DNA of 64,000 bases from Oscillatoria sp. CS-180 (GTDB lineage Bacteria > Cyanobacteriota > Cyanobacteriia > Phormidesmidales > Phormidesmidaceae): NCBI RefSeq assembly GCF_028330965.1, contig NZ_JAQMUB010000044.1, positions 1 to 64,000 on the forward strand, given 5' to 3'. Shown here in pieces: positions 34,398 through 64,000 of the stretch (position 1 is the stretch's first letter; every line of letters starts with the position of its first letter). The position numbers were made by a program, and so were the translations under genes. A model generated the notes under the pieces. That model made no database searches. It was not told the origin of the DNA and worked only from the letters and a program-made list of their open reading frames with translations.

Positions 34398-36239
34398 CTA
34401 GAAATCGTCAGGAAATATCAAAACCTCAACCATTTCTCTATTCGCGTTTCTATCCCTGTCTCGGTGCAAATAACCCACCGTTTCTCCCCATGGAAAAAGA
34501 CAGTAACCCGTTTCCAAATCTAATACTCCTGGATGACTGGCTTTCCTGTAATAGCCTTCACTCGTCTTTTGCCCATATTCAGCTCGACAAACCAATAAAT
34601 CCAAATCAGGATTTACGGGCAGCACACGTTCTGGAATTTCATCCCCTTCAAAAGTAATCCATCTATTTTTTTCAAGCGGAATAAAGACTTCATATTCATC
34701 CCTGATCTCTATTCGCCTCGATTCATTTACGATTTCTTCATTGCTAAATTCGTAGATAGGAATATGACACTCACCAAATATCAATTTTCCTACAAGTAGC
34801 TGATTAGTTGAAAGGCTATGGCTACGACATAGATATAGAGGTAAACTCTTAACTCCATCTTCATATTCATAATCAACCAAGAAAATATCTTTAGGATGAA
34901 TATCAAACTGATTATTCGAGATCCATTTATAACTGCTATCACTAGCTTTAATCAGATCTTTCTTCGAAAAAGATCTATCGTGTTGATGTCTTGAGTCTTC
35001 CTCTGAAGAGATTGCTTCGAATTCCTCTTTTGCTGTTTCATCCAGTTGAATATCACGATCATTAGATGAATAAGTATAGGCAGGTATATTCTGCTCCAAA
35101 TTATCTTGCGGAATGGAATATGAACTTTTTGAAATTGAAGCGTCATCTAAATCTTCTTCAGAATGTGTTTCTAATCCCTCTTTTACTGGTCTATCTAAAG
35201 TTCCTTCATTTCCTTCGGATGAAAGAAGTAAAGGGCCTCTAGATAAAATAATGCGCGATCGCTCTATACCAGCTCCTGTTATCAGAAACGCTATTGAAAG
35301 TGAAGTAAACATTAGGCGTTGATACAGTTTAGGATTCTTCTGGATGAAAGAAGTCACTAGAATCTTACTCCTAACAATAGGATTTGAGCTAGTATGCGGC
35401 ATCAAAGCATCAATGCTGCTACCCAAGACTTTCTTTTCGATCCTTGCACACTCTTTGTGGGATAAAGATAGATCAACCTGTCTTTTTTTCAGAATTTCTA
35501 TAGATGACTCATCTATAAATCCTTCTTCATTATAGATTTCCTCTAAAAAATTCTCATATTTTCTGTGATTTTTTAATTCATTTTTCAGTTTATCTTCTCT
35601 GCTCCTCATACTTTTACTGACTTCTGATTCTTCAATTTTTTTTGCAATATTGTCATCTAACCCAATGCCCCAAGCCATTCGATTTAATTTCTTCCTTTGC
35701 ACATCATTTAATTCGCTTGTTTTACTAATTTCAGAAATAAGGAGCTTTCTATAATCTTCTTTTTTCTTTCGCAGACTATAGAGAGCATCAACACATTTTT
35801 CTATTTCTTCTGTAACCGAAAAATAGGCAGCTTCTCTATCTGCATAGCTGCTGATTGGCTTTTGACTTCGAGGTAAAATATTAATATGTGCAATAGGTGT
35901 ATCGTGCCAAAGACAAGGGCGCAACAACACAGGAATAATTCTGGCTTCTCCATCTCTATGTCTTTCAAGAGAAGCACTCAAATCAAAATCCCAAAACTGA
36001 GAGGACGCTAATGAGTCGGAACTTATTAAAAGCAAAATGATATCGGCATATTGGATTGCTGCTTTAGCTTCTTTCTGTATTTCCTTTCCTGGTTCAATCT
36101 TATATAAGTGAGAAATTCTAATCTTCTTACGATGTACTAGCGGGAAAAGATAGGTTTCTAACTTTTCAAGATATTCTTTATCATTACTAGTAAAAGAAAC
36201 AAATACCGATGCAGGAGCAGAATTCGTTGTTAGTTGCAT
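34398..36239 (-). CDS. TIR-domain membrane protein
   Basis: A 613-residue protein. Residues 10-140 form a TIR domain (SVFVSFTSNDKEYLEKLETY, ADIILLLISSDSL, ARIIPVLLRPCLWHDTP). Many bacterial TIR domains hydrolyse NAD. The usual catalytic glutamate (as in DVEM) seems replaced by aspartate in FWDFDLSASLERH, so activity is uncertain. A charged coiled-coil-like region follows, then a transmembrane helix near residues 308-328 (LMFTSLSIAFLITGAG), a polar low-complexity region, and a C-terminal domain of 150 residues of unknown type. The gene is much more AT-rich than its neighbours and reads against the CIS genes, consistent with recent acquisition. Confidence 0.78.
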   Translation of the reverse strand: MQLTTNSAPASVFVSFTSNDKEYLEKLETYLFPLVHRKKIRISHLYKIEPGKEIQKEAKAAIQYADIILLLISSDSLASSQFWDFDLSASLERHRDGEARIIPVLLRPCLWHDTPIAHINILPRSQKPISSYADREAAYFSVTEEIEKCVDALYSLRKKKEDYRKLLISEISKTSELNDVQRKKLNRMAWGIGLDDNIAKKIEESEVSKSMRSREDKLKNELKNHRKYENFLEEIYNEEGFIDESSIEILKKRQVDLSLSHKECARIEKKVLGSSIDALMPHTSSNPIVRSKILVTSFIQKNPKLYQRLMFTSLSIAFLITGAGIERSRIILSRGPLLLSSEGNEGTLDRPVKEGLETHSEEDLDDASISKSSYSIPQDNLEQNIPAYTYSSNDRDIQLDETAKEEFEAISSEEDSRHQHDRSFSKKDLIKASDSSYKWISNNQFDIHPKDIFLVDYEYEDGVKSLPLYLCRSHSLSTNQLLVGKLIFGECHIPIYEFSNEEIVNESRRIEIRDEYEVFIPLEKNRWITFEGDEIPERVLPVNPDLDLLVCRAEYGQKTSEGYYRKASHPGVLDLETGYCLFPWGETVGYLHRDRDRNANREMVEVLIFPDDF

Positions 36240-36496: not shown

Positions 36497-39319
36497 GTGT
36501 ATCCATTGAATCAGCTACTAACTCAACGTTCGATAGTAGCCCGCAGGGTCTTAGACCGCTACGCGGCAGGAGAACGTAACTTTCAAGGGCAGAATTTGAG
36601 GGGTGTTGTGCTCAGGGGGCAATGCCTCTGTGATGCTGATTTCAGTCAGGCTGACATTCGAGGCGCTGATTTCTCGAACGCTAATTTAAGCAGAGTCCGG
36701 TTTAGGCAAGCCAAAGCAGGCGTGGGACAGCCTTGGCAATGGACTGCTCGGCTGCTCGCGTCCATTTTGGGACTAATGTTTGGTTTTCTGAGCACGCGCC
36801 TTGCAGTGCCTCTTGTCAGTTCTGATGGCTCTGAGCTGATATCTGGCATTGCCAGCATAATGGTTCTGGGGCTGCTCTGCTGGACAATTAACCGATTCAG
36901 CCTACTCAAAGGCGTAACAATTACATTACTACTAGCCGCCCTAGTCGGGATGACAACAGGCATCCTAGCGGTCATTTTTGACTACGTGAGGTTGGGGATA
37001 ATCACTTTATACACCGCTGAAACAACGGTTTTGTGCGTCGGTGTTGTGGGTGTCTTTCATCTAGGGCTGCCGATCGCTCAAGCGTTGACGAAACACAGCA
37101 CTCTCTTGGCTTGTGTGAGTGCGGTGATGGGTGCCATCAGCGTGCCGACGCTGGCATCGGGGCCGTTAGCAGATAATTTGACACCAAAAGGGACTGTTTT
37201 CGCGATCATAATCTCCCTTATTGTGGTGCGACTGGGCGCTCGGTTTGCTCAGCAGGTCTTGTCTGGAGAGTCGCGTCATGCCCTAATGCGATCCTTCACA
37301 ATCGGCGTGGCAGCCGCCTTAGGGACCCGTTTTCGAAATGCCAATTTGACTGAAGTGGATTTTGCTCAAGCTCAGCTATGTTACACCGACCTAGGCGCAG
37401 CCTGTCTGGATTATGGGCGCTGGGATGGCGCTTATGGGCTAGCCTTAGCTCGTTGGGGGAACAGTCCAATGGCAGATCCCGTTGTGCAAAGTTTGTTGGT
37501 TTGGCGTGATCTCAAAGGTCAGTTCGATTTAAGTCGAGCGAATCTTGCGGGAATGGATCTTTCCTATCTCAATTTACAAGGAGCTAATTTCAAAGGCGCA
37601 AACCTCCTCTGCACGAACCTACGAGGTAGCAACCTGAGTCATGCCAATCTGACGCTGGCACAGGGACTAGGGGCTGATTTTAGTCAAGCAACACTGACGG
37701 GAGCTTGTATTGAAGGTTGGGCGATCGATAGTCACACCTGCCTGGCCGATGTGACCTGCCAGTTTGTCTATCGCTTAGAGTTTCCTCGAACGGACACTGA
37801 CGATCGCGAGCGTTATCCCAGCAGTGGTGTCTTTAACCCAGGAGATTTTACGAAGCTGTTCCAGGTTGTCTTGAATACGGTTGAACTGATCTTTCGCAAC
37901 GGCATTGATCGAGGGGCGATCGCCAAAACCTTAGAACATATCCAAGCAACCGTTGATGACCGAATTAATCTACGCAGCGTAGAAGACACGGGAGACGGCT
38001 TATTCAAAATTGCTCTTGGGATCCCGGACGGGATGAACAAGGCTCAACTCCATCATGAATTCAAATCAATCTATCAGGAACACCTTAGGCAAATTGAAAA
38101 TCGGTATCAGGCTCAGCTGTCCACGGCGCAGCAGCAGATTGAACACTATCAAAAAACAACTTCAGAACTCACTCATATCCTGAGGCAATTAACAAATAGT
38201 TCAATGCTTGAGGTAGGACAAGCTGCGACTGATGATAGGCGTGTCATCCTCACCTTTTGGGATGGCAGCCTTGAACAAGGCTATCCGGTGACTGCGGATA
38301 TTCGTCTAGGAGCACTGGCGGAACCTTTGAAATTTCATGCCAGTCTACCTCCTATCCCGGATTTGGCAGTGCTCTATCAAGAGTGGCAAACGCTTTACCG
38401 GCAAGCATTTGGCAACTGCTCACGAATTCAGTTTAAGCATCACCAGGAAATCACGAACGTCTCTCACCAGGAACTCTATCTTTTGGCCGAGCGGTTAGTA
38501 GAGACACTTCAATCCTGGCTGCGATCGCCCACTTTTCGGTTGATCTCCGACAAGCTGCGAGAAAAATTTCTCCCTGATCAGGAAATACGAATATTGATCC
38601 AAACGGAAGATATCTGGCTAAGACGATTGCCTTGGCATACCTGGCACTTTCTACAGGACTATCCGAAAGTAGAAATTGCGCTAAGTGGCATGACGCTAGA
38701 AAACAACAACTATCAGCGGCCAACTCGACGTCGGACTCGTGTCTTAGCCGTTTTAGGTAGCAGTTCAGGCATTGACGTGGGGGTCGATCAGCAGCTTTTA
38801 GAGGCTTTGGGCCGTTCCAACATAGACGTTGTTTTTCTCTCAGAACCTAATCGCAAACAGTTTCACGATACGCTTTGGGATCGTCAAGGTTGGGATGTAT
38901 TTTATTTCTCAGGCCATAGCTACAGCGAGCATGATGGTCATAGTGGCGTGATGCAGCTCAATGCCTTTGAACAACTTTCGATTAAAGATTTACAGTTTGC
39001 TCTGTCAGAAGCAGTGGAGCAAGGGTTACAACTCGCGATCCTTAATTCCTGTGATGGTCTCGGCTTAGCCAAAGAGCTTTGCGCCCTGAAAATTCCTCAG
39101 ATTGTCGTCATGAAGGAAGCCGTACCTGACCAAGTAGCTCAAAGCTTTTTGGAGTACTTATTACAAGCCCTTACTACCCAAAAATCTCTATATTCAGCGA
39201 TTAGAGAAGCCCGTCAGCAACTGTCGAGTTTGGAGGATCAATATCCCTTTGCAAGCTGGCTTCCTACGCTGTTTCAGACCACAACGGAGGCGATCGCGCC
39301 ACGGCTCAGTTCAAAATAA
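36497..39319 (+). CDS. Pentapeptide-repeat, transmembrane, CHAT-protease protein (copy 1)
   Basis: A 940-residue protein starting at GTG 36497. Pentapeptide repeats (LRGVVLRGQCLCDADFSQAD) open it, a membrane region of roughly six or seven helices spans about residues 85-270, and more pentapeptides (LQGANFKGANLLCTNLRGSN) follow. A middle domain with coiled-coil character leads to a C-terminal CHAT domain, a caspase-like cysteine protease fold. The catalytic dyad is visible: His807 in YFSGHS and Cys852 in LNSCDG. CHAT proteases act in bacterial death-type defence when activated by a sensor. A paralogue of the same layout is at 57269-60217 on the other side of the CIS core. Confidence 0.87.
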   Translation: MYPLNQLLTQRSIVARRVLDRYAAGERNFQGQNLRGVVLRGQCLCDADFSQADIRGADFSNANLSRVRFRQAKAGVGQPWQWTARLLASILGLMFGFLSTRLAVPLVSSDGSELISGIASIMVLGLLCWTINRFSLLKGVTITLLLAALVGMTTGILAVIFDYVRLGIITLYTAETTVLCVGVVGVFHLGLPIAQALTKHSTLLACVSAVMGAISVPTLASGPLADNLTPKGTVFAIIISLIVVRLGARFAQQVLSGESRHALMRSFTIGVAAALGTRFRNANLTEVDFAQAQLCYTDLGAACLDYGRWDGAYGLALARWGNSPMADPVVQSLLVWRDLKGQFDLSRANLAGMDLSYLNLQGANFKGANLLCTNLRGSNLSHANLTLAQGLGADFSQATLTGACIEGWAIDSHTCLADVTCQFVYRLEFPRTDTDDRERYPSSGVFNPGDFTKLFQVVLNTVELIFRNGIDRGAIAKTLEHIQATVDDRINLRSVEDTGDGLFKIALGIPDGMNKAQLHHEFKSIYQEHLRQIENRYQAQLSTAQQQIEHYQKTTSELTHILRQLTNSSMLEVGQAATDDRRVILTFWDGSLEQGYPVTADIRLGALAEPLKFHASLPPIPDLAVLYQEWQTLYRQAFGNCSRIQFKHHQEITNVSHQELYLLAERLVETLQSWLRSPTFRLISDKLREKFLPDQEIRILIQTEDIWLRRLPWHTWHFLQDYPKVEIALSGMTLENNNYQRPTRRRTRVLAVLGSSSGIDVGVDQQLLEALGRSNIDVVFLSEPNRKQFHDTLWDRQGWDVFYFSGHSYSEHDGHSGVMQLNAFEQLSIKDLQFALSEAVEQGLQLAILNSCDGLGLAKELCALKIPQIVVMKEAVPDQVAQSFLEYLLQALTTQKSLYSAIREARQQLSSLEDQYPFASWLPTLFQTTTEAIAPRLSSK

Positions 39320-41557: not shown

Positions 41558-43270
41558 ATGGCTCGACTGGATTATTTCGCTCCTGGAGTTTATGTCGAAG
41601 AAGTTTCACGGGGTAGTCGTGCAATTCAGGGGATTAATCTCAGCGTGGCGGGTTTTGTTGGGTTCACCGAAGATATTCGAGGCGATGCCGAACTCTTCGA
41701 GCCGATTTTAGTGACCAGTTGGAGCCAATACCTCGAAAACTTTTCCAAGATTGGATCTGATGGTTTTACAGACTTTGGCGCTTACCTGCCGTTTGCCGTC
41801 AAAGGCTGGTTTGAAAATGGCGGTGGACGATGTTGGGTTGTCAGCATCGGGACAGAATTGCCCATGCCTGACACGACGCCAACCCACGAATTAGACGACG
41901 CCCCCCCAGCCTTAACGCCAGTTAGCACTTCGGGCAACAAGCCGTCTTTGAGGTTTGCTCTAAAACCCGAAAAAGAAGCCGAAGGTCGAGTCCGGGTCTT
42001 CATTGAGCCGGATGAGCCCCTGCCGCCGGATAACCCCGATGAGGAACCCTTCAACAGCGGTGAATTCTTCCAAGTTAAGGTAGTGCCCCGCGATGGCGAC
42101 CCTGAAGTCTTTCGCTATCTCACCATGCAAAACCCTGAAGGTGTGAGCGAAGAAGATCAATCCGCTGGAATTTTTGTGCAAGAGGCCCTGAGCCAGTCTG
42201 AGTACGTCAACGTGGAGCTCACGGCCCCTGAAGGAATGCCGCTGGCGCAGCGTCCCGCCAACGGTGTTTATGAAGTCAGACCCCGCCCGATTCCCTACCG
42301 GACCAAGCAGTGGTATCGGGAAATGTATGGCTCAACGAAGCGGCGATCGGGCGTCCAAGGCCTGTTCGAAGTAGACGAAGTGGCAATGGTTGCCTGCCCT
42401 GACCTGATGCTGGTTTATCAGCGAGGACTCCTCTCCTTACAGCAGGTGCACGGCGTTATGGAGATGATGATCACCAATTGCGAAACGGCGGCTCCTGGAC
42501 CCGCCTATCGCATGGCGGTGATCGATCCGCCCCCAGTCAAGCCCCGTAAAAGCGATTTGCCCGTTCTTCCTGAGCAGCAAAAACCCCAAGACATCGAAGC
42601 ATGGCGCATGGATAGCTTCGGTCGCTTTAGTCAATTCGCGGCCCTCTACTATCCCTGGCTGCAAGTACCGGATCCCCGCAGCGCAGGCAAACCGATCGCG
42701 GTTCCCCCCTGCGGTCACATGATGGGACTCTGGTGCCGCACGGATGAATCACGAGGGATTCACAAGGCCCCTGCCAATGAAATTCCCAGAGGCGTGGTTG
42801 GCCTGGCCTACGATACCAACTTCCGGGAACAAGAATTCTTGAATCCTAAAGGGATCAACTGCGTTCGTAAGTTCCGCAATCGCGGCACGCTGGTTTGGGG
42901 TGCTCGGACCCTGGCGCAACTTGACGATACGGATTGGCGCTACGTTAGCGTTCGACGACTGATGTGCTACATCGCCAAGTCAATTGAAGAGGGCACCCAG
43001 TGGGCCGTCTTTGAACCCAACGATGAGGACTTGTGGGCACGAGTCACCCGCACGGTCAAAAACTTCTTAGAACGGATTTGGCGGCAGGGTGCTTTGTTTG
43101 GCAGCACTCCCGAAGAGGCGTTCTACGTGAAATGCGATGCCGAGTTGAACACACCTGAAACCATGAAGCTAGGACAGCTCTTTGTCGAAATTGGTGTCTG
43201 TCCTGTCCGTCCGGCTGAGTTTGTGATTTTCCGCATTAGCCAATGGGATCAGTCTCAGGATGCGGCGTAG
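41558..43270 (+). CDS. Contractile injection system sheath protein
   Basis: A 570-residue tail-sheath protein whose subunits polymerise around the tube and contract to drive it outward. The N-terminus YFAPGVYVEEVSRGSRAIQG and VAGFVGFTEDIRGDAE is typical, as is the C-terminal TVKNFLERIWRQGALFGSTP followed by VRPAEFVIFRISQWD. Length is within the range of extracellular CIS and T4-like sheaths. It is the first gene of the plus-strand core operon, with AAGGAG 8 bases before ATG and phased repeats upstream. A single sheath gene is visible in the window. Confidence 0.94.
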   Translation: MARLDYFAPGVYVEEVSRGSRAIQGINLSVAGFVGFTEDIRGDAELFEPILVTSWSQYLENFSKIGSDGFTDFGAYLPFAVKGWFENGGGRCWVVSIGTELPMPDTTPTHELDDAPPALTPVSTSGNKPSLRFALKPEKEAEGRVRVFIEPDEPLPPDNPDEEPFNSGEFFQVKVVPRDGDPEVFRYLTMQNPEGVSEEDQSAGIFVQEALSQSEYVNVELTAPEGMPLAQRPANGVYEVRPRPIPYRTKQWYREMYGSTKRRSGVQGLFEVDEVAMVACPDLMLVYQRGLLSLQQVHGVMEMMITNCETAAPGPAYRMAVIDPPPVKPRKSDLPVLPEQQKPQDIEAWRMDSFGRFSQFAALYYPWLQVPDPRSAGKPIAVPPCGHMMGLWCRTDESRGIHKAPANEIPRGVVGLAYDTNFREQEFLNPKGINCVRKFRNRGTLVWGARTLAQLDDTDWRYVSVRRLMCYIAKSIEEGTQWAVFEPNDEDLWARVTRTVKNFLERIWRQGALFGSTPEEAFYVKCDAELNTPETMKLGQLFVEIGVCPVRPAEFVIFRISQWDQSQDAA

Positions 43271-44425: not shown

Positions 44426-44794
44426 ATGTTTCAGACAGAGTTTGACTTCACACTACCCAAGGGTTATCTCGATGGCGAGGGCAATCTCCATCGCCAGGGC
44501 GTGATGCGCCTAGCAAAAGCGATGGATGAAATTGTGCCGCTGAAAGATCCGCGCGTGAAGAGCAACCCTGCCTATGCCACGGTGTTGATTCTGTCGCGAG
44601 TAGTTGTGCGTTTAGGGGCTTTGGAATCAGTCAGTCCGCGCGTGATCGAAAACCTGTATGCCGTAGACCTGAACCATCTTTATGATCTCTATCGTCACAT
44701 CAATGACCTCGATCCCCTCCCACCAGAAAACGGACAATCTGTAGCTCAGCCGAGTGGCTCAACGATGCCCCCTGAGCAAGGAGGTGCGCCATGA
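44426..44794 (+). CDS. CIS-associated protein, homologue of the 60874 gene
   Basis: A 122-residue protein, EFDFTLPKGYLDGEGNLHRQ then GVMRLAKAMDEIVPLKDPRV and ILSRVVVRLGALESVSPRVI. It is clearly homologous to the product of 60874-61254 (EFDFILPKGLIDDRGHLHRQ). Proteins of this kind accompany tail genes of extracellular injection systems and resemble phage tail-assembly chaperones. The C-terminus lacks the cysteine pair seen in the paralogue. AGGAGAGG precedes ATG 44426, and its stop overlaps the start of the next gene (ATGA). Confidence 0.7.
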   Translation: MFQTEFDFTLPKGYLDGEGNLHRQGVMRLAKAMDEIVPLKDPRVKSNPAYATVLILSRVVVRLGALESVSPRVIENLYAVDLNHLYDLYRHINDLDPLPPENGQSVAQPSGSTMPPEQGGAP

Positions 44795-47283
44795 GACTGC
44801 CGGACTTTGTAAATCGCATTCGCCGCAAATTCAGCGAAGTTGGCAACTTTGTTAGGAATCCTGAGCAGGTGATTTATCGCCACGGACGTAAAGTTGCTCT
44901 GGAAAAATATGAACAAATGCCTCTTCCGGGAAAAGGGGCAAAGCAGCAGGGGGCAGAGGAGGCTGTCAAACAAAAGGGAACCGTTCAGGAACGATTATCG
45001 CAGGCGATCGCCCGTCCTAAGCGAGCAAAGACCGCGATCGCAACCGCTTCACACGCTCCAACTCCAATCACTGCCACGGCGATCGCGCCCTCTCCTGAAG
45101 CACCGACCTGGGTCGATCCAGACTTTGCGGTTCTGCAACCGGGTGATGTATTAACCCGGGGATGGGTGGGTCGATACACCGTGGGTGAATGTCTGCAAGA
45201 GCGAGGTTGGATGCGGCTTTATGAAGGCATTCAGGACAACGGGCAGGACGCAGTCTGGATTTATGAATATCGTTTGAGCGATTCTGTTTTTCGGTCGAGA
45301 GATATTCAAGCACGTCGCACCGCATTCAAGCAAATTATCGACCTCAACTCTCGATTGGGCGATGGGTCTGACTTTCGCATTCTGAAACTGCGGGATGTGA
45401 TTACGGCGGTGCAGCAGCCCTGCTACCTAATCACCAAAGCATTGCCCGGCAGCCAGGGCTTGACTGAATATTTAGAAAATCGCCATCAGCCGTTTTCGCC
45501 CAGTCAGGTGCGGGAGTTCCTGCGGCAGGTGCTTCAGTCATTGCAGTATTTGCAGGCTTACCAAGTTCACTGGCCGGACGGTTCTTCACAAACCGGCTTG
45601 CCCCACGGACGCCTGACCCCAGAAAGTCTATGGATACGGTTTTCTGAGGCGAAGCTGCCGACTCAAGGAGACTCCTTTTTTGTTTATCTCTCTCGCCTAG
45701 CGTTGTGGGAGCATTTGTTTTACGCAGGGGAGTTGCCGATTCAAGACATCGCTAAAACAACTCAAGCATTGGGCGCGATCGCAGACGACTTCAATGCATT
45801 GGGAAGGATGGCGTTCCTATTACTGACCGATAATGCTCAAGCTAATCCAGCAGATTTGCAGGCATGGCCCGATGACCCCCAGGCGCGATCGCTCTATCCC
45901 TTTATTTGTCGCTTGCTAGGGGTCGGACCTGAAGAACCGTTCAAAAGTCCGGACACGGCGATCACAGCGCTCAGGGCTTTGCCACCAACTTTTGTTACCC
46001 CCATTGAAACAACTCCCTCAGAAGACACGCCGGTAGAAACTTCTGTTGACGAGTCGAGACGCTGGCTGTGGTGGCTCATGGGCCTCATTTTATTGGGAGC
46101 AGGGTTCTCAATGGTGTGGCAATTACTGCGAGGGAGAGCACCATTGGAACTGGTTGGCCCCGTCTGTGAAGAAGCCGATGGCTGCATTCTCAGTCTTGGT
46201 CGCTTTGGTGAATCCACGAGCCTGACCTATGGATTTGAACCGGGTAGTTACTGGAAAGAAAGCTTTTCCAGGTCGCTGAGGAGTCCTGTTGAAAGTCCAA
46301 ACCGCTCCGTCATGCTGGAGGAGAGCCTTGAAAGACGAGCCGATGTCCCGTCTGCAACTTTGATACGGACGAATGTTGCCCTGCGCGATCGCCAAGATTT
46401 GCTCACTCAAATTCAACGGGGGCAGTTGCAGGCCGGTTTTGTGCGGGGAGGGCAAGCGCTGCCTCCGGGCCTTGCTGAAACGACCGTCGCCTATGACGGC
46501 ATTGCTGTTTTCGTGATTTATAGCGATGCCCAGCGCGATCGCACTCTTCCCAAACTCGTGAATGGGCAAATCTCGCTGACGGAACTGCGGCGGTTGTTCA
46601 CTCAGCAGCAGCAGACTCTCGGTCAGGAGGACACGCCGGTCCAGCTTTACGTCCCACAGGGCTATCTCAAATCTAACGAAGCGGCAGAGACGATCGCCCT
46701 TTTCCGCGAACTCGTTTTTGACACTCCTGAAGACAAAGCTCAGTTCGATGCGGTGCAGCGCCAAGTTTTAACTGAAGTCACCGCCTTGGATACTCGACCT
46801 GATAGCATCTATGCCCATATGCTCAACGATTTTGAGACTCAGGCAAATACAGACCAGCCCATTATGGGAGTCGGTTTTGATCGCATCAGCCGCATGAATG
46901 GACAATGCTCCGTCTATCCGCTCGCGATCGCGCATCAAGGAAAAACCTATCCCGTTCTGGTGGGCAACAACGGACCAACCGATTGGGAAACGGACCTGTG
47001 CGCTGATAGAGGAGCGTACTGGGTGAACTCAGATAGTTTTCAGCCGCCGAATGGCAACGTCAACCACCGCTATCCCTTGGCCTATCCGATGGCGGTGGCT
47101 CATCCCGAAAGGTGCTTAGACGTTGGTGCTGATCCAGAATGCCAGCCTCCCGGTCAAGCATTGGTCGATCAGCTCTTAAGTGTAGAGGGTCAATATTTAC
47201 TGAGTGAAGTAGGGCTGGTGCCTATTGAACCTATCGGGCGGATTCGTCGTTTTTTATGGAGGGGAAATGATGTCATCCAATAA
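44791..47283 (+). CDS. Pseudokinase, transmembrane, phosphate-binding-protein-like fusion
   Basis: An 830-residue protein. After a basic, alanine/proline-rich linker, residues 115-390 look like a Ser/Thr-kinase fold (GRYTVGECLQERGWMRLYEG). The catalytic loop reads LPHGRLTPESLWI (His272), so the catalytic Asp is Arg, and no DFG is visible; it should be a pseudokinase. One transmembrane helix lies near residues 424-446 (RWLWWLMGLILLGAGFSMVW). The C-terminal part resembles a PstS-like substrate-binding domain (VAYDGIAVFVIYSDAQ, VNGQISLTELRRLF). AAGGAGGTG precedes the ATG. A ligand sensor across the membrane linked to the injection machine is a possible role. Confidence 0.78.
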   Translation: MRLPDFVNRIRRKFSEVGNFVRNPEQVIYRHGRKVALEKYEQMPLPGKGAKQQGAEEAVKQKGTVQERLSQAIARPKRAKTAIATASHAPTPITATAIAPSPEAPTWVDPDFAVLQPGDVLTRGWVGRYTVGECLQERGWMRLYEGIQDNGQDAVWIYEYRLSDSVFRSRDIQARRTAFKQIIDLNSRLGDGSDFRILKLRDVITAVQQPCYLITKALPGSQGLTEYLENRHQPFSPSQVREFLRQVLQSLQYLQAYQVHWPDGSSQTGLPHGRLTPESLWIRFSEAKLPTQGDSFFVYLSRLALWEHLFYAGELPIQDIAKTTQALGAIADDFNALGRMAFLLLTDNAQANPADLQAWPDDPQARSLYPFICRLLGVGPEEPFKSPDTAITALRALPPTFVTPIETTPSEDTPVETSVDESRRWLWWLMGLILLGAGFSMVWQLLRGRAPLELVGPVCEEADGCILSLGRFGESTSLTYGFEPGSYWKESFSRSLRSPVESPNRSVMLEESLERRADVPSATLIRTNVALRDRQDLLTQIQRGQLQAGFVRGGQALPPGLAETTVAYDGIAVFVIYSDAQRDRTLPKLVNGQISLTELRRLFTQQQQTLGQEDTPVQLYVPQGYLKSNEAAETIALFRELVFDTPEDKAQFDAVQRQVLTEVTALDTRPDSIYAHMLNDFETQANTDQPIMGVGFDRISRMNGQCSVYPLAIAHQGKTYPVLVGNNGPTDWETDLCADRGAYWVNSDSFQPPNGNVNHRYPLAYPMAVAHPERCLDVGADPECQPPGQALVDQLLSVEGQYLLSEVGLVPIEPIGRIRRFLWRGNDVIQ

Positions 47284-47440: not shown

Positions 47441-47952
47441 CTCAAGGTCCCCAGTTCAACTACGTCACTGCCAATCGGTTTTATGTCGAAATCGATAGCG
47501 AAATTGCCGCTTCATTCAGCGAATGTGCAGGACTTGGAATTACTTTACAGGTGCAGCCTTTGGTGGAAGGGGGCGTCAACGACCAGCAGCGGTTTTTGCT
47601 AGATGCCCCTAAATTCTCAAACGTCACGCTGAAGCGGGGCGTCACTGACAGTCTAGATTTTTGGAACTGGTTGCAAAAGATTCTTGACAATGAAACGAAT
47701 CAGCGCCGCAATGTCAGCATTTTGCTCTTCAGCCAGGCGGGAGAGACTATGCAGTGCTGGACCCTGATCGGCGCTGTGCCCATCGGGTGGAAGGCTGACG
47801 CCCTACAGGCCCGATCAGAAGCCGTGGCGCTGGAGGAACTGACGCTTGCCTATGAAGGGTTGAAGATCGAAGGCAATAATTCCGGCAGCGGATTTGCCCA
47901 ACAATCTCAAGGGCGGGATACAAGCTCCGGCTACTTTGCAGGGAAATCGTGA
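47437..47952 (+). CDS. Third tube-like protein (T4 gp19-like)
   Basis: A 171-residue tube-family protein: FNYVTANRFYVEIDSEIAAS, FSECAGLGITLQVQPLVEGG, FSNVTLKRGVTDSLDFWNWL, and ALEELTLAYEGLKIEGN. It is more distant from the two tube proteins at 43328 and 43790 than they are from each other, and may cap the tube or join it to the spike. The C-terminal 25 residues are polar and probably disordered. The ATG overlaps the preceding stop. Confidence 0.85.
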   Translation: MTQGPQFNYVTANRFYVEIDSEIAASFSECAGLGITLQVQPLVEGGVNDQQRFLLDAPKFSNVTLKRGVTDSLDFWNWLQKILDNETNQRRNVSILLFSQAGETMQCWTLIGAVPIGWKADALQARSEAVALEELTLAYEGLKIEGNNSGSGFAQQSQGRDTSSGYFAGKS

Positions 47953-47954
47953 TT

Positions 47955-50279
47955 ATGGCTGATTGGAATCGCTGGCAAACGCTACCACTGCTGAACTGGG
48001 GACGTCCCCTGGGTCGTCGGGTAAGAGTACCCTTGGGACGATTTACAGACGTGTCCAGCCGCGATAGGGGTATGCCGCATGGGCAACCCCTGGCAGCTTA
48101 TCTATTGGGCTATCCGATTCCGCCGATTGAGGAGTTGCAGACCGCCCTTTCGCTCCCTGCTTCAGCCTCCTCTTCCGAATTGCAGGACCTGCCTTTTATA
48201 GGGCAAGCCTCTTCCCTGCAACAAAAACCACCGCCCGAAGTATCCCCTGACGATCAATTCAAACCAGCTGCCGACACCCCTCCCCTACAAGCCCAGTTCA
48301 CGTCCCCACCTGCTGCTGCCGCTCCGGTACCGAACCGCTCAGACGATCCCCCGGTTGAGACCACGCCGTTTGATCCTCTGGAGTCGCAGAGCAATGGGGT
48401 TTCTACGGAGTTGGATGTCACTCGCGTTGAGAGGGAAGACCTACCTCAATCGGCACTGGCAACACCCGAGGGAACGAGGTCAGCGATCGCCCCTGAAACG
48501 ATCACGATGCCGGAAGATGAGCCAGAACCTCTAGCTGCCGGTGACTCAAACCACATTCAGCCCAGCTCCGTCTTAAACAAAAGCGACGATCCTTTACGGC
48601 TAGGCGATACACCAACTGAGCCTCCAGCCAATAGAGACCTCATTCAGCCTCAAATGCTGAACAACGCTGTGCCCCCTGATGCCTCCAATCCAGACTTGGC
48701 CAAAAGCGACACCGGTTTTGATTACGTCACGTCCACAGATCCCTTACCTAGTCCCTCTACCCCAGAGGTTGTTGCAACAGACATAACCGGATTTCGCGAA
48801 CAGCCCTCCCTGCGAGACTCATCAGCGCTTAAGACTGTGCCGTCTGGAGAGGAGATCCCAGCTGAACAGCCAACTCGACAAGACGCCCCAACCCCTGAAA
48901 CTCTGCCATCCATCGCCACAACTTCAGATCAACCCCCTTCAGCAAAAGAGACAAGCAACCTCCCTGACTTGCCAGAATTAGACTCAAAGTCTGCTGCCCC
49001 TGCTGCCCTGCCCTCAAAACCTGGAGTTCCTGACAAATCTGGAGAGAAAATCACAAGCCCCGCAGCTCCCACAGCCCCTGCAAAGATCCCTGATCAAGAC
49101 GTGGAGATTAGCGAGTCCAGTTTTTCTGAGGATGAAGCGATCGCTCAGCCTCATCTTCCCTTCGAACAGGCCGTTGTTCAACGCACCACTGAACTCGCCC
49201 ATTCCGATACGGACATCGCAAATGCTGACCAACCTGGCCCCCAGCCTGTCATCCCTAATGCGGAACTTCAGACGGTGGTTCCTGCTGAGCACCTGAAGAA
49301 CAGTGACATTAACGCCGCCCCTGTTGACTTTCAGGAGGCGTCCACTACATCCCAAACGCCCTATCAGCCTGAACAAATCCCACGACTACCATCCGTTCAG
49401 CGATATGGGGAATCTGCCAAGTTTCGAGGTTTACCGCGATCGCACCGCTCTCCTTTGGTCGAGCTAGAAGACTACCAGGTTCAGCCAATCTCTACGCCGT
49501 CTGTAGACCCACCTGCTCTGACGCCTGCTGACTTCTCCAGCAAAGACCCACTACCCCCAATGTCACCAACATCGCCGTCAACTTTAGAACGGTCCCTACA
49601 AAACCTAACTTCGCCAACCGTAGATTCTGCAAACTTGCCCTCTCAGCAGCCCTCGTCTTTTCAGCTACGGACGCCAGAGCCTCCTGGCTGGCCTACCAAG
49701 CAGCAGCCGAACCTGGGGAAGATTCAGCCGACCTTACCGGTTCAGATGCGATCGCTAGAGTCTCCTGTTGCTAATGAGTGGGCAACTCAGTTCGATTTAG
49801 AATCCAACTTTGACAATTCTGACTTTGATCTTGAAGCAGACGATTTTTCCTTGGATGATCTGGAGCCAGATGACGCGATCGCCCCTGAAACCGATACCGA
49901 AGCTGCGTCTATCAACATCACTGAATCCCCCGAAGTTCCTGCTTCCGAAACTGACCCAGCGGCAGAGACAAACCACGAAGCAATAACCCTCACTGCCGAC
50001 ATTGCCAGGGCTAGCGCTGATGACGAAAGGCTGGATCACTTAGCGGAATGGGTATACGGAGAATTGCGATCGCACCTCCGCCTCAAACCAGAAACCCATT
50101 TTGGTCGATCAGCTTCCTTCACACTTTGGTACCCGCAGCATCCCAGCTTTGCCACACCAACAGCGCGATCGGAACGAAGTTTTCCGATGCTGCCCTTGCC
50201 GCCCAAATTACATCAGCTCACTACTCTCGTTCGCCAGGAAGTAGAGTCTCGCCTACAACACGATTGGGAAAGAACATAG
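47955..50279 (+). CDS. Long proline-rich, probably disordered CIS protein
   Basis: A protein of about 774 residues; ATG 47955 (MADWNRWQTLPLLNWGRPLG) is preferred to the GTG at 47949. The first 60 residues may be structured. About 600 residues then consist of S, P, D, E and T with few hydrophobic groups and no repeat unit, so they are probably unfolded. A folded C-terminal end (LDHLAEWVYGELRSHLRLKP) follows, of about 80 residues. Position in the core operon suggests a structural or tethering role; a tape-measure function is possible, but helical character is absent. No homologue is recognised. Confidence 0.6.
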   Translation: MADWNRWQTLPLLNWGRPLGRRVRVPLGRFTDVSSRDRGMPHGQPLAAYLLGYPIPPIEELQTALSLPASASSSELQDLPFIGQASSLQQKPPPEVSPDDQFKPAADTPPLQAQFTSPPAAAAPVPNRSDDPPVETTPFDPLESQSNGVSTELDVTRVEREDLPQSALATPEGTRSAIAPETITMPEDEPEPLAAGDSNHIQPSSVLNKSDDPLRLGDTPTEPPANRDLIQPQMLNNAVPPDASNPDLAKSDTGFDYVTSTDPLPSPSTPEVVATDITGFREQPSLRDSSALKTVPSGEEIPAEQPTRQDAPTPETLPSIATTSDQPPSAKETSNLPDLPELDSKSAAPAALPSKPGVPDKSGEKITSPAAPTAPAKIPDQDVEISESSFSEDEAIAQPHLPFEQAVVQRTTELAHSDTDIANADQPGPQPVIPNAELQTVVPAEHLKNSDINAAPVDFQEASTTSQTPYQPEQIPRLPSVQRYGESAKFRGLPRSHRSPLVELEDYQVQPISTPSVDPPALTPADFSSKDPLPPMSPTSPSTLERSLQNLTSPTVDSANLPSQQPSSFQLRTPEPPGWPTKQQPNLGKIQPTLPVQMRSLESPVANEWATQFDLESNFDNSDFDLEADDFSLDDLEPDDAIAPETDTEAASINITESPEVPASETDPAAETNHEAITLTADIARASADDERLDHLAEWVYGELRSHLRLKPETHFGRSASFTLWYPQHPSFATPTARSERSFPMLPLPPKLHQLTTLVRQEVESRLQHDWERT

Positions 50280-50375: not shown

Positions 50376-50900
50376 ATGAAATTCTTCAAAGCTCAGCTTA
50401 AAGCTAAATCTGGCGGTGAGGACATCACCTTCATGTTCAATCCTAAAGAATTGTCATTTTCAAGCACTGTTCAAACAACGGATAATCCAGGGGCAAGATC
50501 GACTCGTTCTGGCAGTCCTCGCGTGAGTTTCAATAATCTGTCGCCTCGGCAAATTATGATCAAAGAAATCTGGTTCGATACTTACGAAACAGGCAAAGAC
50601 GTTATCAAAGAACATATGAAGCTTTTTATCAATTCAGTGAAATTCGACAAAAAAGAAAGCTTCCAGCGCCCACCCATCTATTCATTTATATGGGGTGGAA
50701 ATATCTATTTTGAATATTGCTTTATTGAGCAGCTAAGTTACCGCCTAACCAAGTTTTTACCTAATGGTCAACCCGTGCGAGCTGTGATTGATTCGTTAGT
50801 GCTTAAAGAAACCGAAAAACTATCAGACGATGCAGCAGGTCTGCGTAGTTCTCAAGAAGATTCAGGAGATAACCGTCAAAATCGCAATAAAGGAGGATAG
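50376..50900 (+). CDS. CIS tube/LysM-region protein (Afp7/gp53-like)
   Basis: A 174-residue protein with FFKAQLKAKSGGEDITFMFN at its start and IWGGNIYFEYCFIEQLSYRL, the conserved core of the injection-system tube-initiator family (Afp7/Pvc7-like, related to T4 gp53). Many members carry a C-terminal LysM domain; here the C-terminus is a short polar tail instead. The product sits between tube and spike in other systems and starts tube assembly. The heptamer repeat directly upstream leaves no Shine-Dalgarno site. A spacer of about 120 bases precedes the spike gene. Confidence 0.85.
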   Translation: MKFFKAQLKAKSGGEDITFMFNPKELSFSSTVQTTDNPGARSTRSGSPRVSFNNLSPRQIMIKEIWFDTYETGKDVIKEHMKLFINSVKFDKKESFQRPPIYSFIWGGNIYFEYCFIEQLSYRLTKFLPNGQPVRAVIDSLVLKETEKLSDDAAGLRSSQEDSGDNRQNRNKGG

Positions 50901-51024: not shown

Positions 51025-52731
51025 ATGCCCACCAGCTATCGCGCCCTACCAACTCTCAAACTTGATGATAAGGCTGCTCCAGACGACATCCTAGAAAATA
51101 TTTTGCAGATTATTGTTGAAGAAAGCCTGCATCGTCCTAGTTTGTTTACGCTGGTGATTCGTAACGATTATCAGTCAGGGATGACCAAAGATGATCCCTG
51201 GCGGCGGCAGAAGCAATTCTATATTGGACAAAAGATTTCCGTTGGATTTAAACCTAGTGTGCAAGAGGCTGAATCTAACTCTCGAAAAGGTTCAAATAAA
51301 GACTCCAAACAGCCTGAAAAAGGGGACCTTATTCACGGCGAAATTACAGCCTTTGAAACCCACTTTTCAGAGCGAACCCAAGCCCCCATCATTATTAGAG
51401 GCTATGACATTTCTCATCGACTCCATCGAGGAGTCCATAATCGCTCGTTTCAAGATATGACGGATAGCGATGTGGTCGAAAAGATTGCCGAAGAGGTATC
51501 GATCAAAACGGATCAAATTGACGCCAGTGGCGAACCCCATGATTATTTGTTTCAAGAGAATCAAACCAACATGGCCTTTTTGCGATCGCGGGCTGCCCGC
51601 ATTGGATTTGAACTTTTCATTCGTGATGGCAAACTCAATTTTCGCAAACCTCAGGCCCATGGTGACCCACTCAAACTGACCTGGCTGGAAGATGTGCGAA
51701 GCTTCCACGTGCGCGTGTCCAGCACAGAGCAGGTGCAGTCGGTTGAGGTGCGCGGTTGGGATTACACTACTAAGTCGCCAATTGTCTCCACGGCGCAGCG
51801 GGAGGAACTCATTACCGAAACCGATCAGGAAAAGACGGGTAGCGAGACGAGTACTGTCTTTAACGGGATGAAGGAATCTCCCAAAATGATCGTGTGCGAT
51901 CGCCCTATGTTCAAACGCAAAGAAGCCGATGCCATGGCCCAGGCGCTGTGCGATGAAATCGGCGGTGAATACGTAGTCGCCGATGCCAGAGCTGAGGGCA
52001 ATCCAGAGATTCGACCCGGTTTGCAGGTAGAGCTAGACGAACTGGGTCCCTATACGGGCAAGTACTACGTCACTGAAACCCGCCACGTCTACGCCGAGCG
52101 GAACTACGACACTGAGTTTTCTGTCCGAGGACTGCGCGGTGGCGACTTCCTCAATCTGCTGGTTCCCCCAACACCCACCAAGCCAGGACAAACACTCCTC
52201 GTCGGCATCGTCACCGACAACGAAGATCCCGACGACATGGGCCGGGTGAAGGTCAATTTCCCAACGCTGACCGAAGACCACAACAGCAACTGGGCACGAG
52301 TCGTCAGCATTGGAGCCGCTAACAGTCGTGGCTTCGACTGCTTACCCGAAATCAACGACGAAGTTTTAGTTGCCTTCGAACACGGCGATATCCATCGCCC
52401 TTATGTATTAGGCGGCGTTTGGAACGGAGAAGACGCCCCACCCAACCCCGTCAGCAAAAACGTGCAAGACGGCAAAGTCCGCCTCCGCACAATCCAGACT
52501 CGCACCGGACACAAGATTCAGTTTGTTGAAGAGAATCAGGCAGGCATTTGTATCAAAACGACAGGTGGACATGTTTTTCATTTAAATGATTCTGCCAAAG
52601 ATATCACCATGAGCTCTACAGGCAGCATCAACATTCAAGCTGTAGGCGAAATTAGCGTTAAAGGCGCAAAGATTATGCTGAACTCTGTAGGCGAAATTAG
52701 CGTTGAAGGCAAAAAGATTATGCTGAACTAA
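51025..52731 (+). CDS. VgrG-like baseplate spike protein
   Basis: A 568-residue spike protein. The N-terminal 370 residues correspond to the gp27/phage late control D domain (MTDSDVVEKIAEEVSIKTDQ). The OB-fold gp5-like domain follows with GIVTDNEDPDDMGRVKVNF and LPEINDEVLVAFEHGDIHRP, then a beta-helix start (SMSSTGSINIQAVGEISV). A 15-residue segment, VGEISVKGAKIMLNS, is repeated almost exactly at the C-terminus. It forms the trimeric needle under the tube; the PAAR protein encoded next should cap it. Extended at the end by repeat growth, it is otherwise normal. Confidence 0.93.
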   Translation: MPTSYRALPTLKLDDKAAPDDILENILQIIVEESLHRPSLFTLVIRNDYQSGMTKDDPWRRQKQFYIGQKISVGFKPSVQEAESNSRKGSNKDSKQPEKGDLIHGEITAFETHFSERTQAPIIIRGYDISHRLHRGVHNRSFQDMTDSDVVEKIAEEVSIKTDQIDASGEPHDYLFQENQTNMAFLRSRAARIGFELFIRDGKLNFRKPQAHGDPLKLTWLEDVRSFHVRVSSTEQVQSVEVRGWDYTTKSPIVSTAQREELITETDQEKTGSETSTVFNGMKESPKMIVCDRPMFKRKEADAMAQALCDEIGGEYVVADARAEGNPEIRPGLQVELDELGPYTGKYYVTETRHVYAERNYDTEFSVRGLRGGDFLNLLVPPTPTKPGQTLLVGIVTDNEDPDDMGRVKVNFPTLTEDHNSNWARVVSIGAANSRGFDCLPEINDEVLVAFEHGDIHRPYVLGGVWNGEDAPPNPVSKNVQDGKVRLRTIQTRTGHKIQFVEENQAGICIKTTGGHVFHLNDSAKDITMSSTGSINIQAVGEISVKGAKIMLNSVGEISVEGKKIMLN

Positions 52732-60724: not shown

Positions 60725-60931
60725 CTATTTTCGAGCTTGATTATTGTGCTTCTTGATAGCTTGGACCCAACGATCGCGGCTCAGATGGTCCAATTCAAGA
60801 ATGTCGCTGAGAGACCAGTGAAAGTGGTAAGCGATCGCGGCTACCTCCTCTTTCAATTGTTGAGAGGGGTAGCCTAGTGCTCCCCCACAGGCGATAACTC
60901 CGCTGCGAACTGATGTTGACACTGAGGACAC
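60725..60931 (-). CDS. DUF6760-type small CIS protein
   Basis: A 68-residue protein with GYPSQQLKEEVAAIAYHFHW and SLSDILELDHLSRDRWVQAI, matching the DUF6760 type seen with phage-tail-like loci. The only ATG is at 60931, which lies 58 bases inside the preceding gene; the conserved part starts about where that gene ends, so a non-ATG start is possible. Overlap implies translational coupling. Function is unknown; a tail-assembly chaperone role is likely. Confidence 0.65.
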   Translation of the reverse strand: MSSVSTSVRSGVIACGGALGYPSQQLKEEVAAIAYHFHWSLSDILELDHLSRDRWVQAIKKHNNQARK

Positions 60932-61254
60932 TGTACGGCGAGATGAGGCTGTCCCGACTGGTGGATCTGCTCGTAGAACACCTTTAAGTACTGAATATCA
61001 GGCCGAAAGAGGTTTTCTAACTGCTCTGGAGTGACTGGTTCCAGTTCTCCTAGCCTGAGGATTACCTGAGACAGCAATACCAGTGAGCCATAAGCAGGAT
61101 TCGCCTGAAGGCGAGCGTCTTGCAGCAGGCGAATTTCATCTTTGGCCGTTGCCAAACGCATACGACCCTGGCGATGCAGATGACCGCGATCGTCAATAAG
61201 CCCTTTGGGCAAGATGAAATCAAATTCGGTGGGGAAGAAGGCGGTGTTATTCAT
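60874..61254 (-). CDS. CIS-associated protein, homologue of the 44426 gene
   Basis: Start ATG 61254 (MNNTAFFPTEFDFILPKGL) is chosen rather than 61302 because similarity to the 44426 product begins here. About 126 residues; the shared core is EFDFILPKGLIDDRGHLHRQ and LLSQVILRLGELEPVTPEQL. Unlike the paralogue it ends with VQCPQCQHQF, a C-x-x-C pair plus a histidine that could bind a metal. It and the overlapping DUF6760 gene form a minus-strand pair apart from the core operon. Confidence 0.7.
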   Translation of the reverse strand: MNNTAFFPTEFDFILPKGLIDDRGHLHRQGRMRLATAKDEIRLLQDARLQANPAYGSLVLLSQVILRLGELEPVTPEQLENLFRPDIQYLKVFYEQIHQSGQPHLAVQCPQCQHQFAAELSPVGEH

Positions 61255-61317
61255 GGGTAGAGATGTTCCATATAAACTCGTGCGATGCAGGCCTATAGAC
61301 ACAAGGTCAATCCATTC

Positions 61318-63109: not shown

Positions 63110-63329
63110 TTTGGGCAAATTTGAATTTATGTATGTGCTGTGAGAAAAGTTGTTTTCAGCCTCGTGTAACTGGTGAAGGTATCTTCCAAAAACTGGATAA
63201 AACCTTAGCAAAGGGTCTTCGGCTAGTGTCTCAATCTAGCGGGGACTGGCCAAGAACGAGAAAATTTCGATTAGGTCTGATTTCTGAATTCTGACCCAGA
63301 TTCCACAACGTTGGTTTTTGAGCAGCGCT

Positions 63330-64000
63330 ATGAGCAACCACCTTGCGATCGCAACCGTAACAGCAGCCTTAAAGAAAATGCTGCAAGAAGGGATTAGTCA
63401 AGATATTCCCGGTGCTCAGGTCACCACAGTGCGCCCCGATGCCGCAAGTAGCAGCGTTTCAGGGGCTTGCATCAACTTGTTCATGTACCATGCCATGCCT
63501 AATGCAGCTTGGCGTAATGCTGATCTCCGGACTCGCCGCCCCAAAGGAGAACTTGTCAAACATGGACAGGCCAGCCTAGATCTGTATTACCTGCTGACGT
63601 TTTACGGCAATGAGCAACGGTTAGAACCGCAGCGACTCATGGGCAGTGCAGTGCAAACGCTGGTTGATCGCCCTCAGCTCACTCAACCCATCATTCAAGA
63701 AACAGTAGATAGTACAGCGGACTTGATTGACTCTACCTTGGGTGAGCAAATGCAGCTCGTCCGCTTTTTTCCAGCTGAAATTACAACAGAAGAACTATCT
63801 CGCATCTGGTCAGTATTCTTTCAGATTCCCTACGCCTTGTCCTTTGCCTATCAGGGTACCGCTGTCATCATTCAGGGGCGCAAACCAGGGCGATCAGCTC
63901 TGCCCGTCCGCAGTCGTCGCTTCTATGCCACCCCACAGCGTCCCGTTATCGAAAAAATCACCACGTCTGGTGAACTTAATGAACCCATCACGCTGGATAG
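63330..64000 (+). CDS. Pvc16/DUF4255 family CIS protein, partial
   Basis: From ATG 63330 the frame is open to the window edge (about 223 residues). The start MSNHLAIATVTAALKKMLQE, the following segment SSSVSGACINLFMYHAMPNA, and LDLYYLLTFYGNEQRLEPQR identify the DUF4255 N-terminal domain of Pvc16/Afp16-type proteins, which terminate tube and sheath at the distal end. It is the first gene of a new rightward block, so further CIS genes (ATPase, tape measure) may lie beyond the edge. The 3' end is missing. Confidence 0.9.
   Translation, partial: MSNHLAIATVTAALKKMLQEGISQDIPGAQVTTVRPDAASSSVSGACINLFMYHAMPNAAWRNADLRTRRPKGELVKHGQASLDLYYLLTFYGNEQRLEPQRLMGSAVQTLVDRPQLTQPIIQETVDSTADLIDSTLGEQMQLVRFFPAEITTEELSRIWSVFFQIPYALSFAYQGTAVIIQGRKPGRSALPVRSRRFYATPQRPVIEKITTSGELNEPITLD

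What the first reader, a model, noticed from the sequence alone, without database searches (positions are those of the whole stretch)
44791..47283. Pseudokinase joined through a membrane helix to a PstS-like domain inside the CIS operon
The catalytic loop reads HGRLTPESLW where kinases have HRDLKPENxx; Asp is Arg. After a membrane helix near residue 424 comes a domain with the YDGIAVF and NGQISLxxLRRLF patterns of phosphate-binding proteins. Translational coupling with its CIS neighbours implies a stoichiometric part. It may report an outside or luminal ligand to the assembled particle.
Basis: partly seen in the sequence, partly recalled or inferred. Interest (0 to 1): 0.65.

Follow-up and report, generated by a model that had tools for sequence, protein, structure and literature searches.

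The report
Membrane-tethered pseudokinase of cyanobacterial injection machines
A cyanobacterial gene inside a phage-tail-like injection machine encodes a dead kinase tied through the membrane to a sensor-like domain; relatives accompany one subtype of these machines across the cyanobacteria, and it most likely tethers the machine to the membrane or triggers it.

Summary
The 830-aa ORF at 44791-47283 has a conserved N-terminal helix, a disordered linker, a kinase fold (Z 20.0 to S. aureus Stk1), one membrane helix (421-447) and a PstS fold (Z 17.0). It lacks the beta3 Lys, HRD Asp and DFG Asp. The fusion is not unique: 103 relatives were found; in 39 of the 80 kept loci a tail-tube gene starts within 1.5 kb downstream. 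In 174 genomes of the phylum, 13 carry the fusion; all 13 have three or more tube (gp19) genes, while of the other 161 eight have one or two and none three. So it marks a CIS subtype. All 60 aligned relatives lack the catalytic Asp, and none has the GGT clamp that two PstS-like paralogues of this genome keep. The layout resembles CisA, the Streptomyces membrane protein needed for CIS firing, whose outer domain also resembles solute-binding proteins (PMC12237407). I propose that it works like CisA: a membrane adaptor and trigger with an N-terminal hook. Not shown: contact with the particle, orientation, ligand, membrane, role in firing.

The parts
44791..47283 (+). the pseudokinase-membrane helix-PstS-like protein, 830 aa
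   Evidence: ORF; relatives; model, mean pLDDT 78.6
44791..44925 (+). residues 1-45: conserved N-terminal helices, candidate hook for the particle (role inferred)
   Evidence: helices 3-22 and 24-42 in the model, pLDDT only 44-69 by block; pairwise identity 0.39 (1-22) and 0.28 (23-45) among 13 rows against 0.12-0.13 for the linker
44926..45120 (+). residues 46-110: disordered, fast-changing linker
   Evidence: pLDDT under 50 in 46-103; identity 0.12-0.13
45124..45996 (+). residues 112-402: pseudokinase domain; Tyr158, Arg274, Arg302 stand where Lys, Asp, Asp are in active kinases
   Evidence: VIA-align Z 20.0 to 9ymt and 19.6 to 4eqm; alignment columns
46051..46131 (+). residues 421-447: single membrane helix
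   Evidence: helix in model; hydropathy segment 425-446
46204..47235 (+). residues 472-815: PstS-like domain with invariant Cys706 and Cys737
   Evidence: model of residues 450-830: pLDDT 84.3, pTM 0.86; Z 17.0 to 1twy, 16.8 to 4n13; Cys columns 60 of 60
44426..44794 (+). p122, small gene directly upstream, overlaps by 4 bases; no Pfam (E up to 1) or NCBIfam match
   Evidence: a homologue ends within 1.5 kb upstream in 12 of 80 loci
41558..43270 (+). tail sheath
   Evidence: PF17482 and PF04984
43328..43786 (+). tail tube, gp19 family, first copy
   Evidence: PF06841
43790..44281 (+). tail tube, gp19 family, second copy
   Evidence: PF06841
47437..47952 (+). tail tube, gp19 family, third copy, next gene downstream
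   Evidence: PF06841; a tube gene starts within 1.5 kb downstream on the same strand in 39 of 80 loci
47949..50279 (+). 776-aa Pro/Ser-rich protein, role unknown
   Evidence: no Pfam or NCBIfam match; sequence read
50376..50900 (+). CIS tube-type protein (PF19266)
51025..52731 (+). VgrG-like spike base
   Evidence: PF04717, PF05954
52788..53243 (+). PAAR spike tip
   Evidence: PF05488
53348..53776 (+). gp25 baseplate wedge
   Evidence: PF04965
53817..56162 (+). baseplate J-like protein
   Evidence: PF04865, TIGR02243
56223..57302 (+). short Tail_P2_I / TIGR02242 baseplate protein, about 100 aa of it like CIS12_fam
   Evidence: PF09684, TIGR02242 and NF053768 (58.7 bits, cut-off 860)
63318..64000 (+). 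Pvc16-type cap protein, runs past the window end
   Evidence: PF14065; followed on the contig by an AAA ATPase and an eCIS_core protein

Best explanation
A single-pass membrane adaptor and trigger of a cyanobacterial contractile injection system with three or more tube genes, working like Streptomyces CisA. The C-terminal PstS-like domain lies outside the cytoplasm (thylakoid lumen or periplasm) and senses a ligand, a partner or a state of the envelope, but not phosphate in the usual way. The pseudokinase inside the cytoplasm is a non-catalytic scaffold or relay. The N-terminal conserved helix on a loose linker is the hook that catches the particle and brings it to the membrane, where it can fire. 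Shown by sequence and model: domain order, folds, loss of catalytic and clamp residues, single membrane helix, genomic link with CIS. Inferred: orientation, contact with the particle, sensing, role in firing.
For: Folds: kinase Z 20.0, PstS Z 17.0. Genome association: 13 of 13 fusion-bearing genomes have gp19 against 8 of 161 (P 1.5e-14, not corrected for kinship); within the order 26 of 27 against 16 of 36. Location: 49 of 80 loci carry CIS genes in the flanks and 39 of 80 have a tube gene starting within 1.5 kb downstream; 11 of the 13 genomes have fusion and gp19 on one contig within about 25 kb (positions). Topology: 59 of 60 rows have an even number of Cys after the membrane helix, two of them invariant; Lys/Arg in 15 residues before against after the helix: more in 34 rows, fewer in 10, equal in 16. 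Hook: conserved N-terminus, divergent linker. Baseplate: the Cis12-like protein has 359 aa, without the long Cis12 extension that tCIS use as a membrane connector (PMC8894136 passages), and the gene after it is on the other strand, so no fibre gene is at the usual place (PMC12923769 passages). Parallel: CisA is bitopic, its C-terminal domain resembles solute-binding proteins, and contraction in the cell depends on it (PMC12237407, Discussion and passages).
Against: No interaction, localisation or mutant data. Homology with CisA could not be tested (its sequence was not at hand). 31 of 80 loci show no CIS gene in the flanks held, and a 25-row clade of the tree has no tube gene beside it, though 4 of its rows (L082, L101, L102, L131) have another CIS gene in the flanks; so part of the family may do something else. 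The N-terminal motif is nearly confined to the operon-embedded group, so other members would need another hook. The N-terminal helix model is of low confidence. Charge bias of the window protein itself is neutral (2 against 2). Co-occurrence does not prove contact, and the counted genomes are related to each other.
Confidence: 0.56

Rival explanations
1. A built-in subunit of the particle: present in fixed numbers at the baseplate or tube, anchoring it permanently to the membrane as Cis13 does in tCIS.
For: Gene inside the structural operon between tube genes, 4-base overlap with the upstream gene; a tube gene starts within 1.5 kb downstream in 39 of 80 loci.
Against: No CIS gene in the flanks held in 31 of 80 loci; overlap not conserved; the two confident domains match kinases and solute-binding proteins, not tail parts.
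Confidence: 0.18
2. A membrane sensor that controls expression or assembly of CIS by signalling, without touching the particle; the pseudokinase would regulate another protein.
For: Pseudokinases commonly act as allosteric partners (general knowledge); 45 of 60 rows keep both Lys and DFG Asp and so may still bind nucleotide; copies away from tube genes exist.
Against: No kinase or regulator among the operon genes scanned; the nearest regulator-like genes seen are a PucR-type protein at 26220 and a histidine kinase at 12000. Position among structural genes suggests structural rather than regulatory coupling.
Confidence: 0.13
3. Cargo, effector or self-protection protein of the CIS, not part of firing control.
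For: CIS clusters carry cargo genes; an eCIS_core protein is encoded further on this contig.
Against: No eCIS_core domain in the window protein or among the families matched by the 60 rows; a membrane helix with a folded outer domain is unusual for tube cargo (general knowledge); found widely over the phylum.
Confidence: 0.06
4. A phosphate-related sensor that sits in the CIS operon by chance.
For: PstS fold.
Against: GGT clamp intact in 0 of 60; linkage with CIS far above chance; no pst transporter family among the neighbours scanned.
Confidence: 0.03

Closest known systems
CisA (SCO4242) of the Streptomyces coelicolor CIS
   Same: Encoded with a CIS that lacks clear fibre genes; single-pass; extracytoplasmic C-terminal domain resembling solute-binding proteins; loose cytoplasmic N-terminal part (paper Discussion and passages).
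   Different: CisA has 468 aa with a largely unstructured N-terminus and no mention of 'kinase' in the paper; here a whole pseudokinase and a complete PstS-type domain. CisA's gene is just downstream of the baseplate genes, this one is among tube genes. Sequence kinship untested.
thylakoid-anchored CIS (tCIS) of Anabaena PCC 7120
   Same: Cyanobacterial CIS with a membrane link.
   Different: tCIS are held by extensions of Cis12 and a membrane helix in Cis13 (PMC8894136, abstract and passages); here the Cis12-like protein is short. 'Kinase' occurs 0 times in that paper.
PknB-type bacterial Ser/Thr kinases (Stk1, PknB, PknA)
   Same: Kinase fold, Z 18-20; one membrane helix between kinase and outer domain (recalled for the PknB type).
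   Different: Catalytic residues lost; outer domain is PstS-like, not PASTA (PASTA recalled).
PstS and membrane-anchored PstS-like proteins (two paralogues in the same genome, L067 and L068)
   Same: Fold; GQC...C cysteine pair; N-terminal hydrophobic segment before the domain; hhalign E 2.8e-25 and 3.8e-25.
   Different: Paralogues keep GGSTT and GGT loops; the fusion family does not keep the GGT clamp.

Membership tests
CisA-type CIS membrane adaptor | single membrane helix with N-terminus in, C-terminus out | tested here: inconclusive
   one helix; orientation only from charge bias and paired Cys, charge bias neutral in the window protein itself
CisA-type CIS membrane adaptor | C-terminal domain like solute-binding proteins | tested here: met
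   Z 17.0 to a PstS
CisA-type CIS membrane adaptor | encoded in CIS loci | tested here: met
   window operon; 49 of 80 loci
CisA-type CIS membrane adaptor | sequence homology with CisA | not tested
CisA-type CIS membrane adaptor | needed for contraction in the cell | not testable with these tools
   needs a mutant
tCIS | Cis12 with a long extension | tested here: not met
   the Cis12-like protein has 359 aa and 58.7 bits against a cut-off of 860
tCIS | Cis13 with membrane helix, Cis19 crown | not tested
   their sequences were not at hand
active Ser/Thr protein kinase | kinase fold | tested here: met
active Ser/Thr protein kinase | beta3 Lys, HRD Asp, DFG Asp | tested here: not met
   Tyr158, Arg274, Arg302; HRD Asp absent in 60 of 60
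PstS phosphate-binding protein | fold | tested here: met
PstS phosphate-binding protein | GGT/SGT oxyanion clamp (role recalled) | tested here: not met
   second clamp position (column 633) is Gly in 0 of 60, placed by alignment to two paralogues
PstS phosphate-binding protein | ABC transporter genes next to it | tested here: not met
   none among the neighbours scanned with Pfam

The most novel reading that the evidence does not exclude
Cyanobacterial CIS with three or more tube genes and no fibre at the usual place are a membrane-triggered subtype whose firing is gated by a pseudokinase that carries a signal from a PstS-derived lumenal or periplasmic domain to a particle-binding hook: a dead-receptor-kinase trigger for an intracellular injection machine, reached by cyanobacteria and Streptomyces through the same plan (membrane helix plus solute-binding domain), by descent or by convergence.
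Probability: 0.35. Interest if true: 0.8.

Novelty: new variant of a known kind. Interest (0 to 1): 0.62.

Why it matters
How intracellular CIS are told to fire is open: Streptomyces needs CisA, and tCIS are anchored by their baseplate and fibre (papers above). If the reading is right, this family offers a second, large set of proteins with the CisA plan, marks a CIS subtype over a phylum, and gives testable parts: a hook, a dead kinase and an outer sensor. It would also show a receptor-kinase layout turned into a non-enzymatic part beside a phage-tail machine.

Tried and rejected
Unique to this genome: rejected. Active kinase: rejected on three residues; an odd chemistry without the catalytic Asp is not excluded. 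Phosphate sensor: unlikely, clamp lost. Gene fusion artefact: rejected, full-length relatives with the same gene order. First scan with the single protein gave no relatives; the alignment query did. Literature (open-licence library only): 'contractile injection system' with 'pseudokinase' gave 0 papers; with 'kinase domain', 'transmembrane' and 'baseplate' one paper, off topic by title; 'eCIS' with 'protein kinase' and 'cyanobacteria' five, off topic by title; kinase with phosphate-binding fusion terms, 20 of 2,657 listed, none on such a fusion by title; CIS with solute-binding terms, 10 of 137 listed, the CisA paper the only CIS one. The paper on hot-spring CIS notes no close cisA homologue in Roseiflexus (PMC12998442, passages). 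A very long open frame in one relative seemed to join a cargo-like gene to this one; it runs through a stretch of N and was rejected as an artefact. NCBIfam CIS12_fam passed its cut-off in 0 of 63 genomes, so it served only as a weak marker. The tree is the quick kind, with long branches and weak deep forks. Rows dropped: of 80 loci, 79 gave one protein (L139 was split), 59 went with the window into the 60-row alignments A2 and A3; 20 were left out as near copies, truncated, over-long or of unsure start. The 80 loci are the best 80 of 103 and were found with one conserved motif, so strongly changed members are missed; one such (L153) was added to the phylum count after I read it.
Full report
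WHAT IS THERE. It lies in a CIS operon: sheath, two gp19 tubes, a 122-aa gene, this gene, a third gp19 tube, a 776-aa Pro/Ser-rich protein, CIS_tube, VgrG, PAAR, gp25, baseplate J and Tail_P2_I. A Pvc16 cap gene starts at 63318 and, past the window on the same contig, an AAA ATPase and an eCIS_core protein follow. So the CIS looks nearly complete; a fibre and a tape measure were not identified. By gp19 it is the only CIS in the genome (three copies, all here).

ANATOMY. AlphaFold2 with 60 rows gives mean pLDDT 78.6: two N-terminal helices (low confidence), a disordered stretch 46-103, a confident domain about 112-402, a helix 421-447 and a second confident domain. The first matches Ser/Thr kinases: 9ymt Z 20.0, 236 residues, 3.5 A; 4eqm Z 19.6. 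The second, folded alone (pLDDT 84.3, pTM 0.86), matches phosphate-binding proteins: 1twy Z 17.0, 234 residues, 3.3 A; the first 30 rows are phosphate-binding proteins by title, iron-binding proteins follow from Z 13.2. By sequence, Pfam sees only a weak kinase stretch in the window protein (17.1 bits, cut-off 31.7), but of 60 family members 49 match PBP_like_2 and 27 match Pkinase at E 0.01 or better; a profile of the family finds PstS (4q8r, 2.4e-9) and S. aureus PknB (4eqm, 2.7e-6).

DEAD ON BOTH SIDES. In 60 aligned proteins the HRD Asp is never Asp (Asn in 56; Arg in the window). Beta3 Lys is kept in 47 and DFG Asp in 53, both in 45, neither in 5 (window, L071-L073, L138). Most of the family may still bind nucleotide; the window's branch probably not (inference). 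In the outer domain the GGT clamp is intact in 0 of 60, while two PstS-like paralogues of the same genome, related over 274-276 columns (E 2.8e-25, 3.8e-25), keep it and share the cysteine pair. So the outer half most likely came from such a protein and changed or lost its ligand.

TOPOLOGY. One hydropathy segment at 425-446 in the window. Of the 60 rows, 34 have more Lys/Arg in the 15 residues before the peak than after, 10 fewer, 16 equal, the window among the equal ones (for L079 the script picked a peak elsewhere, and a few rows show a second segment above the threshold). After the helix 59 of 60 rows have an even number of Cys (four in 50), with Cys706 and Cys737 invariant, as expected for disulphides outside the cytoplasm. 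Which membrane is unknown.

A FAMILY THAT FOLLOWS ONE KIND OF CIS. Within the order, 27 of 63 genomes have the protein; 26 of these have gp19, against 16 of the other 36 (Fisher P 9e-6). The exception is a 70% complete genome with one Phage_base_V match. Three or more gp19 copies occur in 25 of 27 against 3 of 36 (counted, P). In 174 genomes drawn from the phylum, each at least 90% complete, 22 match the profile at E 1e-20; 12 match over both halves and one more (G122) is a degenerate copy beside a gp19 gene; the other 9 match the PstS-like half alone. All 13 have gp19, three or more copies each, against 8 of 161 others, which have one or two (E 1e-10; P 1.5e-14 and 7e-20; kinship not corrected). 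In 11 of the 13 the two lie on one contig within about 25 kb; in G116 and G172 they are on different contigs. Among the best 80 of 103 relatives in genome contigs, cyanobacterial by record title, 49 have CIS genes in the flanks held, 39 have a tube gene starting within 1.5 kb downstream, 12 have the 122-aa gene within 1.5 kb upstream; 31 have no CIS gene, some with short flanks. In the tree the operon-embedded rows need 2 changes (shuffled mean 12.3), and the window sits with L071-L073 (SH-aLRT 99).

THE BASEPLATE. The window's Cis12-like protein has 359 aa and matches CIS12_fam over about 100 aa. A CIS12_fam match at E 1e-6 occurs in 25 of 27 fusion-bearing genomes of the order, against 8 of 36. 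Long Cis12-like open frames (975-1123 aa) occur in G032 and G045, which lack the fusion, and as one of two matches in G057 and G058, which have it. tCIS use a long Cis12 extension as a membrane connector (PMC8894136, abstract and passages). Fibre genes lie after Tail_P2_I and Afp11/12 in about 90% of cases (PMC12923769, passages); here the next gene there is on the other strand. So this CIS shows neither known membrane link, though Cis13 or fibre equivalents were not searched for by sequence.

MECHANISM. The nearest parallel is CisA (PMC12237407, Discussion and passages): bitopic, N-terminus in, C-terminal domain like solute-binding proteins, needed for contraction in the cell, not in the purified particle, predicted to bind Cis11. 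I propose the same job here. The N-terminus supports a hook: among 13 rows, nearly all of the embedded kind, identity is 0.39 in residues 1-22 and 0.28 in 23-45, falls to 0.12-0.13 in the linker, and is 0.31-0.46 in the kinase stretches. Steps shown: parts, folds, residue losses, association. Steps inferred: orientation, docking, sensing, firing.

WHAT SPEAKS AGAINST. A clade of 25 rows has no tube gene beside it; 21 of these have no CIS gene at all in the flanks held, 4 have one. N-termini of members outside the embedded group differ, some with a Cys pattern like a zinc ribbon. If the hook reading is right they must dock in another way or serve another end. The degenerate copy in G122 has the N-terminal motif but hardly a kinase, so the kinase half may be dispensable. 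Co-occurrence is counted on related genomes. No experiment was possible.

NOVELTY. No paper in the open library holds both 'contractile injection system' and 'pseudokinase'; in the passages of Geller 2021 that hold 'kinase' the only kinase named near eCIS is a histidine kinase (PMC8213781). CisA makes the principle known; the pseudokinase, the full PstS-type domain and the phylum-wide link are, as far as I searched, new.

Noticed in passing
window 60874-61302 (-): A second copy of the 122-aa gene that precedes the pseudokinase gene (137 bits to the iterated profile); several relatives (L098, L109, L114, L130, L143) have two copies beside the tube genes.
   Followed up: partly
window 36497-39319 (+) and 57269-60217 (-): Two large proteins with pentapeptide repeats and a CHAT domain flank the CIS operon on both sides.
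   Followed up: no
window 34398-36239 (-): TIR-domain protein of 613 aa near the CIS operon.
   Followed up: no
window 47949-50279 (+): 776-aa Pro/Ser-rich, probably disordered protein between third tube and CIS_tube; by tblastn only parts near its C-terminus were seen in two relatives. Possible tape-measure or spacer role, untested.
   Followed up: partly
L067 and L068 (same genome, other contigs): PstS-like proteins with an N-terminal hydrophobic segment and intact clamp loops, close kin of the outer domain; matches to this half alone occur also in genomes without gp19.
   Followed up: partly
L153: A strongly degenerate member (kinase part hardly recognisable by eye, N-terminal NFAENP motif and outer domain kept) beside a gp19 gene.
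   Followed up: partly
L152:11444-12754 (contig positions about 67443-68753, past the window): eCIS_core (DUF4157-type) protein, a likely cargo marker of this CIS.
   Followed up: no
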